Origin: Planctomycetota bacterium
GTDB taxonomy: Bacteria > Planctomycetota > Brocadiia > Brocadiales > Brocadiaceae
NCBI GenBank assembly: GCA_016188675.1
Contig: JACPHJ010000092.1
Location: 1-64,000 of the forward strand
DNA length: 64,000 bases
Direction: 5' to 3'
Below the pieces are notes generated by a model. That model searched no databases and was not told the DNA's origin. It saw only the letters and a list, made by a program, of their open reading frames with translations. Shown here piece after piece: positions 58,433 through 63,673 of the stretch (position 1 is the first letter of the stretch; the number at the start of each line of letters is the position of its first letter). Both the position numbers and the translations under genes were made by a program.

Positions 58433-58798
58433 TTATCTCATGTCTCGTTGGATTTCCCTGTCAATGTCACGTTTTTTGATGTCTTCACGCTTGTCAACTT
58501 TCGATTTTCCTCTAACAAGGGCAAGTTCCACTTTGACAATGCCATCCTTAAAATATATTGATAAAGGAATCATCGTATATCCTTCGTGGTTTTGTCTGTT
58601 TCCTTGTTTATATTGTCCAATGTGCATTTCATAGATAAATATTTCACCGTTATTAAGATGGGCAAAACTTTCGTTAATACTTACATCTCTATTCCGTATT
58701 GACTTAACTTCTGTTCCTGTTAGTGCAATACCAGCCTCAATCTTTTCGAGAATTTCATATTGGAAATACGCTTTCCTATTCTTAGCAATAATTTCCAT
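58433..58798 (-). CDS. smpB: SsrA-binding protein SmpB with missing central segment
   Basis: SmpB binds tmRNA and delivers it to stalled ribosomes. The 121-residue product has the conserved start (AYFQYEILEKIEAGIALTGTEVKSIR, residues about 10-35; MHIGQYKQGNRQNH near 57-70) and end (EGYTMIPLSIYFKDGIVKVELALVRGKSKVDKREDIKKRD). Between the last H and EGYT it lacks about 25-30 residues, normally DP-x-R-x-RKLLL-x-x-x-E-x-x-x-L-x-G-x-V. The join is in frame. The gene is therefore deleted, or the organism's SmpB is naturally reduced. Family length is about 150-160 residues. Confidence 0.85.
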   Translation of the reverse strand: MEIIAKNRKAYFQYEILEKIEAGIALTGTEVKSIRNRDVSINESFAHLNNGEIFIYEMHIGQYKQGNRQNHEGYTMIPLSIYFKDGIVKVELALVRGKSKVDKREDIKKRDIDREIQRDMR

Positions 58799-59085: not shown

Positions 59086-59169
59086 GCCGAAGTGGCGGAA
59101 TTGGCAGACGCGCTAGATTCAGGGTCTAGTCCCGGCAACGGGGTCAGGGTTCAACTCCCTGCTTCGGCA
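59086..59169 (+). tRNA. tRNA-Leu (anticodon CAG)
   Basis: An 84-base class II tRNA. Acceptor GCCGAAG (59086-59092) pairs with CTTCGGC (59162-59168), discriminator A. Anticodon stem CTAGA/TCTAG with loop TTCAGGG, anticodon CAG (59120-59122), reading CUG. A long variable arm (TCCCGGCAACGGGG) and T-loop GGTTCAACTCC are present. CCA is not encoded. Its 3' end abuts the stop codon of the convergent octahaem cytochrome gene. Confidence 0.96.
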
Positions 59170-59170
59170 T

Positions 59171-60487
59171 TTATCTTAATTTAATACCCATTTTTCTCCT
59201 GAGTTCAGCCTCTTCCCGCAATTTTCTTGCTTCTTCTTTAATATCACTCAAATCATTTTGGAGTTCTGCCCATCCATATAAATGCGTATAATTAGGATTT
59301 GCGTGATATGCCCCTTTCCAGGTAATTTTTGCACTGTATGTTAATTTGAAAAACATACGCTCAATCCTGGATTTGTTACTATAGAACCGTTGATTCCCAA
59401 GGATAATGGTATGACCGAGTGATTTAATATTTGCCTTTTTATTAATCGGAGGAGTTATCAGGTTGTCTCTTTCCAGTCCGTTGATGATTTCTTCGGCCTC
59501 TTTTACAATCGTCTCCACATTTTCATGAATGGTATCCGCCGTGTTTAATTTTTCCTTTGCAAAACGTGGTGAATGGCATGTATTACATTCCGACAGCATG
59601 GCATCACGCCTTTCAGCCAATCTGGATTCATCCACAGAAATACCGTTTCTATCAATATACGACAATTCCCCCCCTACAGGTCCGTAGGCAATTCCAAAAC
59701 TAATATCGTGAGTACCCTGAGGCATATGACAAGTAACACATATTGGCGACCGTAATGATCTGATGGATTCAGATTCTTTTAATATACTGGACTGGCTAGC
59801 CGTGTATACAGCACCATGCTTGGAAGAGATGTATATCTCATAATGTGGTTGGTCTGACCCCATGTGACACGTCATACAAGCCTCAGGAGTTTTTGCTTCA
59901 AGAGTATCAAAGGTATGCCTTGTGTGACATGAATCGCACTTAAACTGTATGTTATGGCACTGCTCACAATTTGCCGAACGGGTCTCTTTGGAAATCTCTA
60001 TATATTGACCGCAGTCCACCATTCTCTGCCAACCGATTGAATGGCGACTCTTCATAAACTCATTGTACTGCCTCGAATGGCATTTTCCACAGCTACCCGC
60101 AATAACCTGGCGGCTGACCCTTTTATCGTCACAATTACTTCCACTGGCGTAAAGATAACCTTGTTCAGATGCTTCATTAACAGCGGGTTCCAAGGCAGAG
60201 CTTATATGACAGGCCTCACACCCCACACCTTTTCTTGCGTGCTTACTACCCTCCCAATCGGCAATCCAACCGTGAGTTATACCGCGCTCTTCGTGACACG
60301 TAATACATTTTAAAGATTCTGCCGTAATACCGCTCTCCTTTTTGACAGATACCGTCTTTTCTTCATGAGGAACATTCGCTGTTTTCGTTTGTGTAGTGCA
60401 GCCCGTAAACCAAATCAACTCGACAAAAAAAGATGTAAAAATAATGAGTTTTACTAACTTAGTGAGATGCCCTGAAGAATTCGACAT
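59171..60487 (-). CDS. Octahaem c-type cytochrome, hydroxylamine oxidoreductase-like
   Basis: A 438-residue product from the ATG at 60487, which has GGGGGAAAG upstream; the open frame extends to 60544. The signal region (residues about 10-31, ending WFTGC) resembles a lipoprotein box. Eight CxxCH motifs in order: CITCH, CEACH, CGKCH, CEQCH, CDSCH, CMTCH, CVTCH and CNTCH, the number and spacing class of HAO-like octahaem proteins. After the last haem comes KITWKGAYHANPNYTHLYGW, an aromatic segment in the part of HAO that carries the catalytic cross-linked Tyr. Whether this Tyr serves that role needs alignment. Reaction inferred as hydroxylamine, nitrite or nitric-oxide chemistry in the periplasm or anammoxosome. 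Confidence 0.85.
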   Translation of the reverse strand: MSNSSGHLTKLVKLIIFTSFFVELIWFTGCTTQTKTANVPHEEKTVSVKKESGITAESLKCITCHEERGITHGWIADWEGSKHARKGVGCEACHISSALEPAVNEASEQGYLYASGSNCDDKRVSRQVIAGSCGKCHSRQYNEFMKSRHSIGWQRMVDCGQYIEISKETRSANCEQCHNIQFKCDSCHTRHTFDTLEAKTPEACMTCHMGSDQPHYEIYISSKHGAVYTASQSSILKESESIRSLRSPICVTCHMPQGTHDISFGIAYGPVGGELSYIDRNGISVDESRLAERRDAMLSECNTCHSPRFAKEKLNTADTIHENVETIVKEAEEIINGLERDNLITPPINKKANIKSLGHTIILGNQRFYSNKSRIERMFFKLTYSAKITWKGAYHANPNYTHLYGWAELQNDLSDIKEEARKLREEAELRRKMGIKLR

Positions 60488-60621
60488 GACTTTCCCCCTT
60501 TGATGGATATTGGATGTATTACCGCTGGTTGGTATTATACACACATAATTTTAAAATAAAAGGGGTTATTCTGCGAAATGCCTGCTAATAGGCAAGCAGC
60601 TAATTCGATATTTTTCGGCAC

Positions 60622-61629
60622 TCAATCTTCATTCTCATCTTCGTCTTCCTCTTTATCATTGAAAGCTTCGGCTTGGGGATTACCATAACTTTTTCCGTTA
60701 ATCGACATTTGATGGCATCTCAGACAGTCTCCGTAATCGTATATACCGTGTTCTTCGTGCTCGTGTCGTAAATGGGGTGTGTTATGTTCGTGACAGTTCA
60801 AGCACGTATACTGCTTATAATTACCATTTTGATGACAGGTATTACATGACACATAATGATCTCCGTCAAGCGGGAAATATTTATCATGATCAAAGATAGC
60901 AGGTTTCCATTTCTTGGTTGAGTGACACGTTTTACAGCCTTCCGAGACGGTTTTGTGAAGGTTGTCTTCAGGTTTTTCATGACATTCTACGCAAGTCTGT
61001 GTAGAACTAAGTGCATCGTGGTTAAAATGGGTTTTCAGCCAGTCATCCGTTGTATGACAGGTTTCGCAAGTTTCCGAATATTGTTGGTGTTTATTATCCT
61101 TTGGTAATGGATGGCAGCTTATACAACTCATCTTTCCAAATATCGTGTCATGGTTAAATGAAATAATCTTCCACCCTGTAGTAGAAACATGACACGACTT
61201 GCAATCTGTGTTATATCTATTTGTATGAAACTTTTGATAATCTGCAATATGACATGCTCCACACTCGTCTAATATTCTTAAGGCAAGTATTTTATGGTCA
61301 AAGGATTTCGTTATCTTTCCTGTCATTCCTTGATGTTCGGTATGACAATCCAGACAGTCTTTGTCAATGTAGGAAATATGCAGGTCTGCTAATGGTTTGT
61401 TGGCAAGCTGTGACAATCTGTCAAATGTATGACAGTCACTTGTCATACATAAACTAGAATTTGCACCTTTAAAAGGAATGTGACATTGTCTGCAATTTTT
61501 AATACCCTGGTGGTCTTTACGCAGATCGCCTGTGGAATAAAGATGCGTAGGAAACCTTAAGCCTATAACCCAAATAATAATTAGTACTGCAATCGTTATA
61601 AGTAAGGTAATAGTGACCGGTTTTTTCAT
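60622..61629 (-). CDS. Membrane-anchored dodecahaem c-type cytochrome
   Basis: A 335-residue product from the ATG at 61629, which follows a GGAGG site; the open frame reaches 61680. An N-terminal TM anchor (residues about 5-25) is followed by twelve haem sites: eleven CxxCH (CRQCH, CLDCH, CGACH, CKSCH, CISCH, CETCH, CVECH, CKTCH, CNTCH, CLNCH and CLRCH) and one CX4CH (CMTSDCH, second in order). Many FNHD/FDHD motifs supply distal His ligands, as in cytochrome c7/class III proteins. The C-terminus is very acidic (KEEDEDENED). It would carry electrons between the membrane cytochrome b and a soluble partner. Confidence 0.85.
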   Translation of the reverse strand: MKKPVTITLLITIAVLIIIWVIGLRFPTHLYSTGDLRKDHQGIKNCRQCHIPFKGANSSLCMTSDCHTFDRLSQLANKPLADLHISYIDKDCLDCHTEHQGMTGKITKSFDHKILALRILDECGACHIADYQKFHTNRYNTDCKSCHVSTTGWKIISFNHDTIFGKMSCISCHPLPKDNKHQQYSETCETCHTTDDWLKTHFNHDALSSTQTCVECHEKPEDNLHKTVSEGCKTCHSTKKWKPAIFDHDKYFPLDGDHYVSCNTCHQNGNYKQYTCLNCHEHNTPHLRHEHEEHGIYDYGDCLRCHQMSINGKSYGNPQAEAFNDKEEDEDENED

Positions 61630-61639
61630 AGTCGAAAAA

Positions 61640-62218
61640 CTACCTCCAGAATCCTTCATAATACAATGCCGATAAGACATGATATGTCACTGTCATCGCC
61701 AGGGCAAAAACAATAGGGATATGAACTGTGCGCCAATGTTTCATGACCCCATGGGTCACAACGAGTGAGGAAAGAGTGTTTTCTATTTCATTTTTAGCCC
61801 GTCCTTTTTCTTCCATTTCTTTTTTCTGTGACATTAATTCTTTACTTACATGTAAATAAAGATACCTTCCAGTTAGTCCACTTACAACAGTTACAAACAT
61901 AACACCTGTTGTAATAAGCGGAACCACGGCGTGTCCATAAAACCCACCATGAATGAATACCAACCCAGTCCCAACAATTGCAAGCCATTCATGAGCAGTC
62001 AGCCAAAGTTTTAAGTTGCCGGATTTTAAAACAATTTTTCGTTTTCTTAAGGAATACACAATCGAGATCAATATAAGGCTAGTGCCTATAGTTCCGATAA
62101 GGTGGTGTAAGCGTTCAAACCCAGTATAATCCAATATTGTTCCCAAAAATATTGAACCAATAATTGTAGCGACAATGCATGCTATGAATGCAACCAATCG
62201 AACTAAAATTATTTTCAT
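61640..62218 (-). CDS. Membrane cytochrome b-like protein
   Basis: A 192-residue product from the ATG at 62218, with AAGGAAGGT upstream; the open frame extends to 62380 but overlaps the next gene. Five probable TM helices. Histidines on helices could bind haem b: RLHHLIGTIGT, WLTAHEWLAIVGTGLVFIHGG, VTHGVMKHWRTVHIPIV and TVTYHVLSALYY. A cytosolic charged loop (KELMSQKKEMEEKGRAKNEIE) separates helices 4 and 5. This fits a quinone-reactive cytochrome b561-like subunit. It lies 10 bases before the dodecahaem gene, consistent with one complex. Confidence 0.65.
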   Translation of the reverse strand: MKIILVRLVAFIACIVATIIGSIFLGTILDYTGFERLHHLIGTIGTSLILISIVYSLRKRKIVLKSGNLKLWLTAHEWLAIVGTGLVFIHGGFYGHAVVPLITTGVMFVTVVSGLTGRYLYLHVSKELMSQKKEMEEKGRAKNEIENTLSSLVVTHGVMKHWRTVHIPIVFALAMTVTYHVLSALYYEGFWR

Positions 62219-62234
62219 TTCAGGTACCTTCCTT

Positions 62235-62567
62235 TTAACTATGATGGATGAGATTATCCTCTCTATGTTCAGTGTGACAATCCAGACAATCTTTGTTCTT
62301 ATTGACATAAGAAATATGTAAATCGGATAGTGCTTTAATGGAGAGGCGAGATAGTCTATCGATTGAATGACAGCCGTCACTCATACACATACTTGAAGAT
62401 ACTCCTTTGAAAGGAATATGACATTGTCCACAATTTTTAATAGCTTGATGAGCTTTACAAATATTACCAGGGCAATAAAAACAGGTTGGAAATCCATAAC
62501 TCATGGCGCATACAATAACGAGTCCGACAAATGACGTAATTAAAGTAATAACGATTGGTTTTCTCAT
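62235..62567 (-). CDS. Small triheme c-type cytochrome, truncated paralogue
   Basis: A 110-residue protein with a good GGAG site. TM anchor (residues about 5-24). Three haem sites: CGQCH, the unusual CX4CH CMSDGCH, and CLDCH. Aligned by eye it is a copy of the first 100 or so residues of the dodecahaem protein (shared NCxQCHIPFKGxxSS and LHISY...KDCLDCHTEH), then it stops at HREDNLIHHS. It is first in the cluster. Either a real small electron carrier or a truncated duplicate. Confidence 0.75.
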   Translation of the reverse strand: MRKPIVITLITSFVGLVIVCAMSYGFPTCFYCPGNICKAHQAIKNCGQCHIPFKGVSSSMCMSDGCHSIDRLSRLSIKALSDLHISYVNKNKDCLDCHTEHREDNLIHHS

Positions 62568-62821: not shown

Positions 62822-63673
62822 ATGGAAAATAAAGGCAGCAAAGCAACTATTATTTTAATAATTTGCAATGCCTTTTTATTCGCCATAAAGATCACGGCGG
62901 GTCTTACATCGAATAGCCTGGCCATTATCTCGGACGCTGTGAATTCGCTCACAGACATTGTCTCTTCTGTAATTATTTTCTTTGCCGTGAAAACCTCTTC
63001 AAAACAAGCGGATGAAGGACACCCATTTGGTCACCATCGTGCAGAACCGATAGCAGGCTTAATCGTAGCTATTTTTGCCGGCATTTTGGGATTCGAAATA
63101 CTCCACACTTCTATTTTCAAATTAATGGAAACACATGTGCACAAGATAGGAATTTACACAATCGCAGTACTCCTGGTATCTATTGGTTTGAAATTTATCA
63201 TGTCTACCTATTTTAAAAGTGTTAGCCGTAAAATAAACAGTCCTGCTTTATTGGCAAGCTCCATCGACAGCAGGAACGATGTATATATATCCACCACCGC
63301 CCTGGTCGGTGTTGTTTGCGGACTTTATGGTTATCCGCAAATGGATGATATTGCTGCAATCCTTATCAGCTTTTGGGTTATTTACTCAGGTTATAAAATT
63401 GGCGTCCAAAACATTGACTACCTCATGGGCAGGCAACCCAATTCCAGTATCATGAAAGAAATTAAAAAGAAGGCATGCGCTGTTTTTGGTGTTATTGGAA
63501 TTCACGATGTCCGCGCACACTACGTAGGCAATTATATCCATGTTGAAGTACACATATCTATAGATCAAAATTTGACGATGATACAAGCTCACGATATTGG
63601 GAAAAATGTCCAAAGAGAGATAGAGTCTATCGAAGGTATTCATAAGACATTTGTGCATATTGATCCTATTTAG
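62822..63673 (+). CDS. Cation diffusion facilitator family transporter
   Basis: A 283-residue six-TM CDF protein that exports divalent metals (Zn, Fe, Mn) for protons. TM2 metal site region SLAIISDAVNSLTDIVSS (residues about 32-49; D and D), the loop GHPFGHHRAEPIAG (about 66-79) typical of the FieF type, and TM5 SIDSRNDVYISTTALVG with the second half-site. The C-terminal cytosolic domain (HVEVHISIDQNLTMIQAHDIG) is the CDF dimerisation fold. It is divergent from the cytochrome cluster. Confidence 0.93.
   Translation: MENKGSKATIILIICNAFLFAIKITAGLTSNSLAIISDAVNSLTDIVSSVIIFFAVKTSSKQADEGHPFGHHRAEPIAGLIVAIFAGILGFEILHTSIFKLMETHVHKIGIYTIAVLLVSIGLKFIMSTYFKSVSRKINSPALLASSIDSRNDVYISTTALVGVVCGLYGYPQMDDIAAILISFWVIYSGYKIGVQNIDYLMGRQPNSSIMKEIKKKACAVFGVIGIHDVRAHYVGNYIHVEVHISIDQNLTMIQAHDIGKNVQREIESIEGIHKTFVHIDPI

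What the first reader, a model, noticed from the sequence alone, without database searches (positions are those of the whole stretch)
59171..62567. Compact cytochrome module: triheme, cytochrome b, dodecahaem and HAO-like octahaem in one strand run
Four co-directional genes within 3.4 kb with gaps of 16, 10 and about 130 bases encode a membrane cytochrome b, two membrane-anchored c-type cytochromes (12 and 3 haems) and an HAO-like octahaem protein. This reads as a dedicated quinone-to-nitrogen-compound electron route. The octahaem protein may be a lipoprotein, which is unusual for the HAO family. The combination could be an undescribed reductase or dehydrogenase complex.
Basis: partly seen in the sequence, partly recalled or inferred. 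Interest (0 to 1): 0.72.

Follow-up and report, generated by a model that had tools for sequence, protein, structure and literature searches.

The report
Octahaem gene beside unrelated cytochrome pair
Four neighbouring haem-protein genes in an anammox bacterium look like one new nitrogen enzyme complex, but comparison with relatives shows a known octahaem protein with its own promoter-like sequence standing beside a separate, widespread and unnamed membrane electron-transfer gene pair plus a decaying gene fragment.

Summary
The four genes are real, where stated, on the minus strand. They are not one conserved module. (1) The octahaem protein (59171-60487) is the Brocadiaceae orthologue of Kuenenia kuste2457. 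It belongs to a single HAO-like clade that best fits 'HAO6'. Its lipobox is widely conserved. The cross-linking Tyr is replaced by His, and the Asp-His pair by Asp-Gln. 28 of 33 family genomes carry it; 24 of those lack the cytochrome b/dodecahaem pair. About 110 bp just upstream, with an invariant TGTATAATA, is kept in relatives with and without the pair, so it probably has its own promoter. (2) Cytochrome b plus dodecahaem is a separate two-gene cassette under purifying selection. The same pairing occurs in Bacteroidota, Gammaproteobacteria and other phyla, with no HAO-like neighbour found outside anammox. The cytochrome b has two invariant HX13H pairs on TM3 and TM5, suggesting two stacked b haems; no Pfam or NCBIfam model covers it. 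In anammox it sits beside the octahaem gene in two genera, 67 kb away in a third, and decays in one sister genome. (3) The 'trihaem' gene is a truncated duplicate of the dodecahaem N-terminus, broken in both sister genomes. A dedicated quinone-to-nitrogen complex is therefore unlikely.

The parts
59171..60487 (-). HAO-like octahaem c-type cytochrome, predicted lipoprotein (lipobox WFTG-C, Cys30), orthologue of Kuenenia kuste2457, best fit HAO6 clade
   Evidence: 8 CxxCH; PF13447 106 bits; PDB HAO matches; 26-member clade, SH-aLRT 99; 433-aa Kuenenia orthologue
60531..60572 (-). conserved promoter-like block (TGTATAATACC) upstream of the octahaem gene, kept in genomes with and without the cytochrome pair
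   Evidence: proximal 110 bp 65-84% identical to cassette-free G012, G013, G038, G039, G040 against shuffled maximum 0.55-0.56; no similarity above shuffled further upstream
60622..61629 (-). dodecahaem c3/c7-type cytochrome (11 CxxCH + 1 CX4CH) with N-terminal membrane anchor and acidic tail; second gene of the cassette
   Evidence: omega 0.20 G000 against G041
61640..62218 (-). five-helix di-haem b-type cytochrome, invariant H76/H90 (TM3) and H166/H180 (TM5); first gene of the cassette
   Evidence: omega 0.11; no Pfam or NCBIfam family over cut-off
62235..62567 (-). 'trihaem' ORF: truncated duplicate of the dodecahaem N-terminus, degenerating in sister genomes
   Evidence: 57% identity to dodecahaem residues 1-100; frameshift or deletion in G041 and G043
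62822..63673 (+). cation diffusion facilitator, divergent neighbour that marks the ancestral place of the cassette; not part of a shown system
   Evidence: adjacent to the cassette in G000, G041, G043, G022, G027
59086..59169 (+). tRNA-Leu(CAG), convergent, 1 nt from the octahaem stop codon; marks the conserved 3' border of the octahaem gene

Best explanation
The run is two functional units of separate history plus a fragment. Unit 1 is a lipid-anchored HAO-like octahaem cytochrome (kuste2457 / HAO6 type). Its non-cross-linked active site (His in place of the cross-linking Tyr, Gln in place of the catalytic His268) suggests it works in the reductive sense on a nitrogen oxide or hydroxylamine, or has drifted towards an electron-transfer role; it is probably transcribed from its own promoter. 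Unit 2 is a two-gene transmembrane electron conduit: a five-helix cytochrome b with two b haems stacked between TM3 and TM5 passes electrons between a membrane or cytoplasmic donor (quinol, or NADH via a flavin/2Fe-2S reductase as the gammaproteobacterial versions suggest) and a membrane-anchored dodecahaem cytochrome on the outer (P) face, which hands them on to soluble or extracellular partners. The trihaem ORF is a decaying duplicate. Shown: gene content, haem motifs, conserved His, clade membership, independent distribution, conserved upstream block, purifying selection. Inferred: haem stacking, electron direction, substrates, promoter activity, lipidation.
For: Octahaem orthologues in 28 of 33 family genomes, most without the pair. 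Kuenenia orthologue exactly 433 aa, between a kuste2435-like gene and an 852-aa kuste2479-like gene, matching lengths in PMC3482989 and PMC4913261. Single clade. Tyr467 column: His in the window; H/Y/N/F in the clade, at least 4 changes on the tree. His268 column: Gln in the window's genus, H/N/I/S elsewhere, at least 5 changes. Upstream 110 bp conserved irrespective of the cassette. Cytochrome b + polyhaem adjacent in 59 of 62 analysed loci over several phyla (55 of 62 fetched loci by direct scan, which also counts the remnant L160, where the gene found is the octahaem one), with no HAO-like neighbour found outside anammox. Four His invariant in 36 sequences. Cassette omega 0.11 and 0.20. Cassette remnant in G043, intact pair 67 kb from the octahaem gene in G022. 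Gamma versions preceded by an NAD/FAD/2Fe-2S reductase in 29 loci.
Against: In G000, G041 and G027 the pair lies directly upstream of the octahaem gene on the same strand, and that arrangement is probably ancestral for at least part of the family, so read-through or functional coupling is possible there. No terminator-like site was found between the dodecahaem and octahaem genes. The promoter-like block has a weak -35 and did not pass the consensus scan. The Foldseek/VIA comparison of the cytochrome b does not stand above unrelated helical bundles. The HAO6 label was assigned from published descriptions, not from the original reference sequences. Several genomes are incomplete, so some absences of the pair may be gaps in assembly.
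Confidence: 0.72

Rival explanations
1. The four genes form a dedicated membrane complex: cytochrome b takes electrons from quinol, the dodecahaem (and trihaem) wire them to the lipid-anchored octahaem enzyme, which reduces (or oxidises) a nitrogen compound.
For: Same strand, short gaps, all membrane-attached; adjacency recurs in genera g1 and g6 (G000, G041, G027). A precedent exists in Kuenenia, where the HAO-like kuste4574 belongs to a Rieske/cytochrome b complex (PMC8862662).
Against: 24 of 28 octahaem-bearing genomes lack the pair; the pair lives without HAO-like genes in many phyla; separate conserved promoter-like block; the pair is 67 kb away in G022; trihaem broken in relatives.
Confidence: 0.12
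2. The cytochrome b/dodecahaem pair serves metal redox chemistry (for example Fe or Mn reduction or oxidation linked to metal transport) or extracellular electron transfer, and is unrelated to nitrogen.
For: VIT-family (Fe/Mn) genes beside 7 Bacteroidota cassettes; CDF genes beside the anammox cassettes and 5 gammaproteobacterial ones. Weak profile matches of two members to Ferric_reduct (PF01794, best 0.0011). Anammox extracellular electron transfer is reported (PMC7188810), although that paper does not name such genes in its main text.
Against: Association is partial, partly from related genomes, and was not tested against a background rate; in anammox the CDF gene stays when the cassette is lost; no outer-membrane porin-cytochrome gene in the run.
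Confidence: 0.3
3. The octahaem protein no longer catalyses nitrogen chemistry and acts as an electron-transfer cytochrome.
For: Both catalytic positions (Tyr467, His268 of N. europaea HAO) vary within the clade: H/Y/N/F and H/Q/N/I/S.
Against: HAO-like enzymes without the cross-link, such as kustc0458 (HAOr), reduce nitrite (stated in PMC12485887); the Asp of the pair is kept; omega 0.11 shows strong constraint.
Confidence: 0.3

Closest known systems
Kuenenia stuttgartiensis kuste2457 (best fit: HAO6 clade of Okubo et al. 2021 as used in PMC12758564)
   Same: Orthologous clade; eight c haems; predicted lipoprotein; clade outside the major anammox HAO clade; His/Tyr switching at the key site
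   Different: The window protein has His at the Tyr467 column and Gln at the His268 column; the Kuenenia protein has Tyr and His there
HAOr (kustc0458; PDB 6h5l), nitrite-reducing octahaem lacking the Tyr cross-link
   Same: HAO-like by sequence (2e-35), no cross-linking Tyr
   Different: Different clade; Trp rather than His at the site; keeps Asp-His; partnered by the dihaem kustc0457
Kuenenia Rieske/cytochrome b complex kuste4569-4574 containing the HAO-like kuste4574
   Same: HAO-like protein encoded near a cytochrome b and a polyhaem cytochrome
   Different: No Rieske gene in the window run; the small cytochrome b is not PF00033; the octahaem protein is of another clade
Ferric-reductase / NOX-type and cytochrome b561-type membrane cytochromes
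   Same: Two b haems expected; His pairs on two helices (HX13H on TM3 and TM5; comparison with NOX from general knowledge); gamma versions sit beside an NAD/FAD/2Fe-2S reductase
   Different: Five helices; no family over curated cut-off; partner is a polyhaem c cytochrome
Geobacter Cbc-type cytochrome b/multihaem inner-membrane conduits (from general knowledge)
   Same: Membrane cytochrome b paired with a polyhaem c cytochrome
   Different: Sequence relation not tested here

Membership tests
HAO-like octahaem family (PF13447) | Eight CxxCH motifs and profile match over cut-off | tested here: met
   8 CxxCH; 106.3 bits against cut-off 21.9
Oxidative HAO / HDH / HOX | Cross-linking Tyr (Tyr467 of N. 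europaea HAO) | tested here: not met
   His in the aligned column (NYTHLYGW against GWTYTEGW)
Oxidative HAO / HDH / HOX | Catalytic Asp-His pair (Asp267-His268) | tested here: not met
   Asp-Gln (MGSDQPH)
kuste2457 orthologue group | Monophyly with the Kuenenia 433-aa protein lying between kuste2435 and kuste2479 | tested here: met
   clade of 26, SH-aLRT 99; position and length (PMC3482989, PMC4913261)
HAO6 clade (Okubo et al. 2021) | Grouping with the published HAO6 reference sequences | tested here: inconclusive
   Absence from Scalindua, place outside the major clade and His-to-Tyr changes in some Brocadiaceae all match PMC12758564; reference sequences not available
Bacterial lipoproteins | Lipobox with Cys after a hydrophobic stretch | tested here: met
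   WFTGC in the window, pattern in 21 of 26 clade members; one Glu lies in the hydrophobic stretch
Cytochrome b/b6 (PF00033) and Rieske/bc complexes | Profile match of the b subunit and a Rieske gene nearby | tested here: not met
   No PF00033 match and no Rieske gene in the run
Prokaryotic cytochrome b561 / Ni-hydrogenase cytochrome b (PF01292) | Score over the curated cut-off of 30.1 bits | tested here: not met
   19.9 bits
Ferric reductase / NOX transmembrane superfamily (PF01794) | Profile match or clear structural match | tested here: inconclusive
   2 of 36 family members match weakly, best E 0.0011; Foldseek and VIA matches at helical-bundle background
One operon of four cytochrome genes | Single transcript | not testable with these tools
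   Needs RNA data; conserved separate promoter-like block argues against

The most novel reading that the evidence does not exclude
In this Brocadiaceae genus and in one g6 genome, the cytochrome b/dodecahaem conduit and the lipid-anchored, Tyr-less octahaem protein have become a membrane-bound electron route to a nitrogen compound, a wiring of an HAO-like enzyme not described before.
Probability: 0.1. Interest if true: 0.68.

Novelty: new variant of a known kind. Interest (0 to 1): 0.36.

Why it matters
It removes a tempting but poorly supported 'new anammox complex' and replaces it with two testable items: an anammox lipoprotein octahaem clade whose active-site residues have switched repeatedly, and a widespread cytochrome b/polyhaem gene pair that current family libraries do not name and that may be a general transmembrane electron conduit.

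Tried and rejected
VIA lists cytochrome b561 (Z 8.7), Dcytb (8.3) and FdnI (7.2) among unrelated helical bundles, so it is not decisive. PDB sequence search with the cytochrome b profile found nothing relevant, and the dodecahaem found no PDB relative. The gamma NADH reductase was sought in anammox genomes: only generic paralogues. PADLOC: nothing. Literature searches found no description of the pair; these cover open-licence papers only. The idea that the octahaem protein is a new HAO type was rejected by the tree and by the kuste2457 synteny. A trihaem function independent of the dodecahaem was judged unlikely because of disruption in both sister genomes, although the window copy keeps its three motifs and omega against the dodecahaem is 0.14.
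Full report
OBSERVATION. The four reading frames are present on the minus strand with gaps of 16, 10 and 134 nt, each with a sensible start. Haem motif counts are 8 CxxCH for the octahaem protein, 11 CxxCH plus one CX4CH for the dodecahaem, and 2 CxxCH plus one CX4CH for the trihaem. The window belongs to a genome of 3.6 Mb (G000) of an anammox family (f1, Brocadiaceae by its relatives: the contig of G043 is a 'Candidatus Brocadiaceae bacterium' record). The contig of G041 is from the New Zealand aquifer MAG nzgw514.

OCTAHAEM PROTEIN: IDENTITY. Pfam PF13447 scores 106 bits, and the nearest solved structures are the HAO-like proteins 6t5e, 4n4j (kustc1061), 6h5l (kustc0458) and N. europaea HAO (locus names of the PDB entries from general knowledge). 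Orthologues at 38-92% identity occur in 27 of the 33 f1 genomes, plus a C-terminal fragment in G023; genomes of the other four families of the order gave only the weaker matches typical of other HAO-like proteins. In a tree of 91 HAO-like proteins they form one clade (26 full-length rows, SH-aLRT 99), outside the clades of HDH, HOX and HAOr. In Kuenenia (G032) the orthologue is exactly 433 aa and lies at 3.688 Mb, between a kuste2435-like octahaem gene (3.667 Mb) and an 852-aa gene (3.715 Mb). [quoted passage not shown] So this is kuste2457. PMC12758564 describes a clade HAO6 outside the major clade, absent from Scalindua, with His-to-Tyr changes in some Brocadiaceae; this clade fits, although the reference sequences could not be compared.

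OCTAHAEM PROTEIN: ACTIVE SITE AND ANCHOR. The alignment to N. europaea HAO puts His (NYTHLYGW) at Tyr467 and Gln at His268 (MGSDQPH), with Asp267 kept. Across the clade the Tyr column is H, Y, N or F (at least 4 changes on the tree) and the His268 column is H, Q, N, I or S (at least 5 changes). An oxidative, cross-linked P460 chemistry is therefore not expected in the window protein; a reductive role or an electron-transfer role is (inference). A lipobox is found in 21 of 26 clade members by pattern, and in 10 of 65 other HAO-like proteins.

CYTOCHROME b AND DODECAHAEM. In 62 genomes of the order, intact pairs occur only in G000, G041, G022 and G027 of f1, in G050 (with a shorter polyhaem), at a contig end in G061, and in G001. 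A scan of 84,980 species' genomes with the cytochrome b alignment returned 62 loci from Bacteroidota, Gammaproteobacteria, Chlorobiota, Fidelibacterota and others. A polyhaem gene follows directly in 55 of 62 by scan and in 59 of 62 analysed loci by clustering. Searching these loci with the octahaem protein found clear matches only in the two anammox contigs of G041 and G043, and one marginal haem-motif match (L183, E 8e-4) that lies on the cassette's own polyhaem. H76, H90, H166 and H180 are invariant in 36 sequences. In a confident model (pLDDT 87.6) they fall on helices 69-91 and 162-187, the HX13H-twice pattern of di-haem b cytochromes. No Pfam or NCBIfam model exceeds its cut-off. In 29 gammaproteobacterial-type loci the pair is preceded by an NAD/FAD/2Fe-2S reductase; anammox genomes gave only generic paralogues of it. 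The tree separates the Brocadiaceae/Scalindua versions from that of Candidatus Anammoxibacter (G001), which groups with the gammaproteobacterial and Fidelibacterota ones. Omega between G000 and G041 is 0.11 (cytochrome b) and 0.20 (dodecahaem), so the pair is under constraint in this lineage.

ARE THEY ONE SYSTEM? Of 28 octahaem-bearing family genomes, 24 lack an intact pair. In G022 the pair stands beside the same CDF gene as in the window, but the octahaem gene is 67 kb away; there the pair follows a cytochrome b6-like piece, a decahaem and a pentahaem gene. In G043 the cytochrome b is truncated, the dodecahaem gone and the trihaem frameshifted. The 110 bp in front of the octahaem ATG are 65-84% identical between the window and genomes without the pair (shuffled maximum 0.55-0.56), and similarity stops further upstream. 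The block contains TGTATAATA in all eight genomes of g1 and g2 compared. At its other end the octahaem gene abuts a convergent tRNA-Leu in several relatives. The octahaem gene thus behaves as a single-gene unit, and the pair as an insert or an ancestral neighbour that most lineages lost.

TRIHAEM. It is 57% identical to residues 1-100 of the dodecahaem, carries an internal deletion in G041 and frameshifts in G043, and has no counterpart in other cassettes examined. It is most likely a decaying duplicate.

MECHANISM. Most likely, the pair moves electrons across the membrane through two b haems to a P-side polyhaem; the donor may be quinol or a cytoplasmic reductase, and the acceptor is unknown (inference). 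The octahaem protein is a lipid-anchored HAO-like protein of the non-cross-linked type. Electron flow from the pair to the octahaem protein is possible in the genomes where they adjoin, but nothing requires it.

VERDICT. Real genes, wrong grouping. The octahaem protein is a known anammox clade; the cytochrome b/polyhaem pair is a widespread unnamed variant of a known kind of redox conduit.

Noticed in passing
window 58433-58798 (-): The only smpB gene of G000 has an in-frame deletion of 24 codons (PKRVRKLLLHKREIAKIAGKIKQK) that all compared relatives, also of the same genus, keep; either a real lesion of the trans-translation partner or an assembly fault.
   Followed up: partly
window 59086-59169 (+): tRNA-Leu(CAG) ends 1 nt from the octahaem stop codon, convergent; the same junction is kept in several relatives, and in G027 (L055 from 8335) the tRNA is interrupted after the anticodon arm with unrelated, possibly mobile genes downstream.
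   Followed up: partly
window 62822-63673; L164, L185, L204, L213, L217; L161-L163, L165-L167, L170: CDF metal transporters lie near anammox and some gammaproteobacterial cytochrome b/polyhaem cassettes, and VIT-family (Fe/Mn) transporters near seven Bacteroidota ones; a possible metal link, not tested against background.
   Followed up: partly
L137 5395-10006 (G022): A five-gene cluster: cytochrome b6-like piece (PF00033), decahaem, pentahaem, then the cytochrome b/dodecahaem pair, beside the same CDF gene.
   Followed up: partly
L046 6798-8450, L050 2155-3798: In genomes without the cassette the same place between CDF and octahaem gene can hold a large tetratricopeptide-repeat protein gene.
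   Followed up: no
L007, L101, L103, L107, L112, L125, L131: Another anammox HAO-like clade shows Glu-Gln at the catalytic Asp-His position while keeping the Tyr.
   Followed up: no
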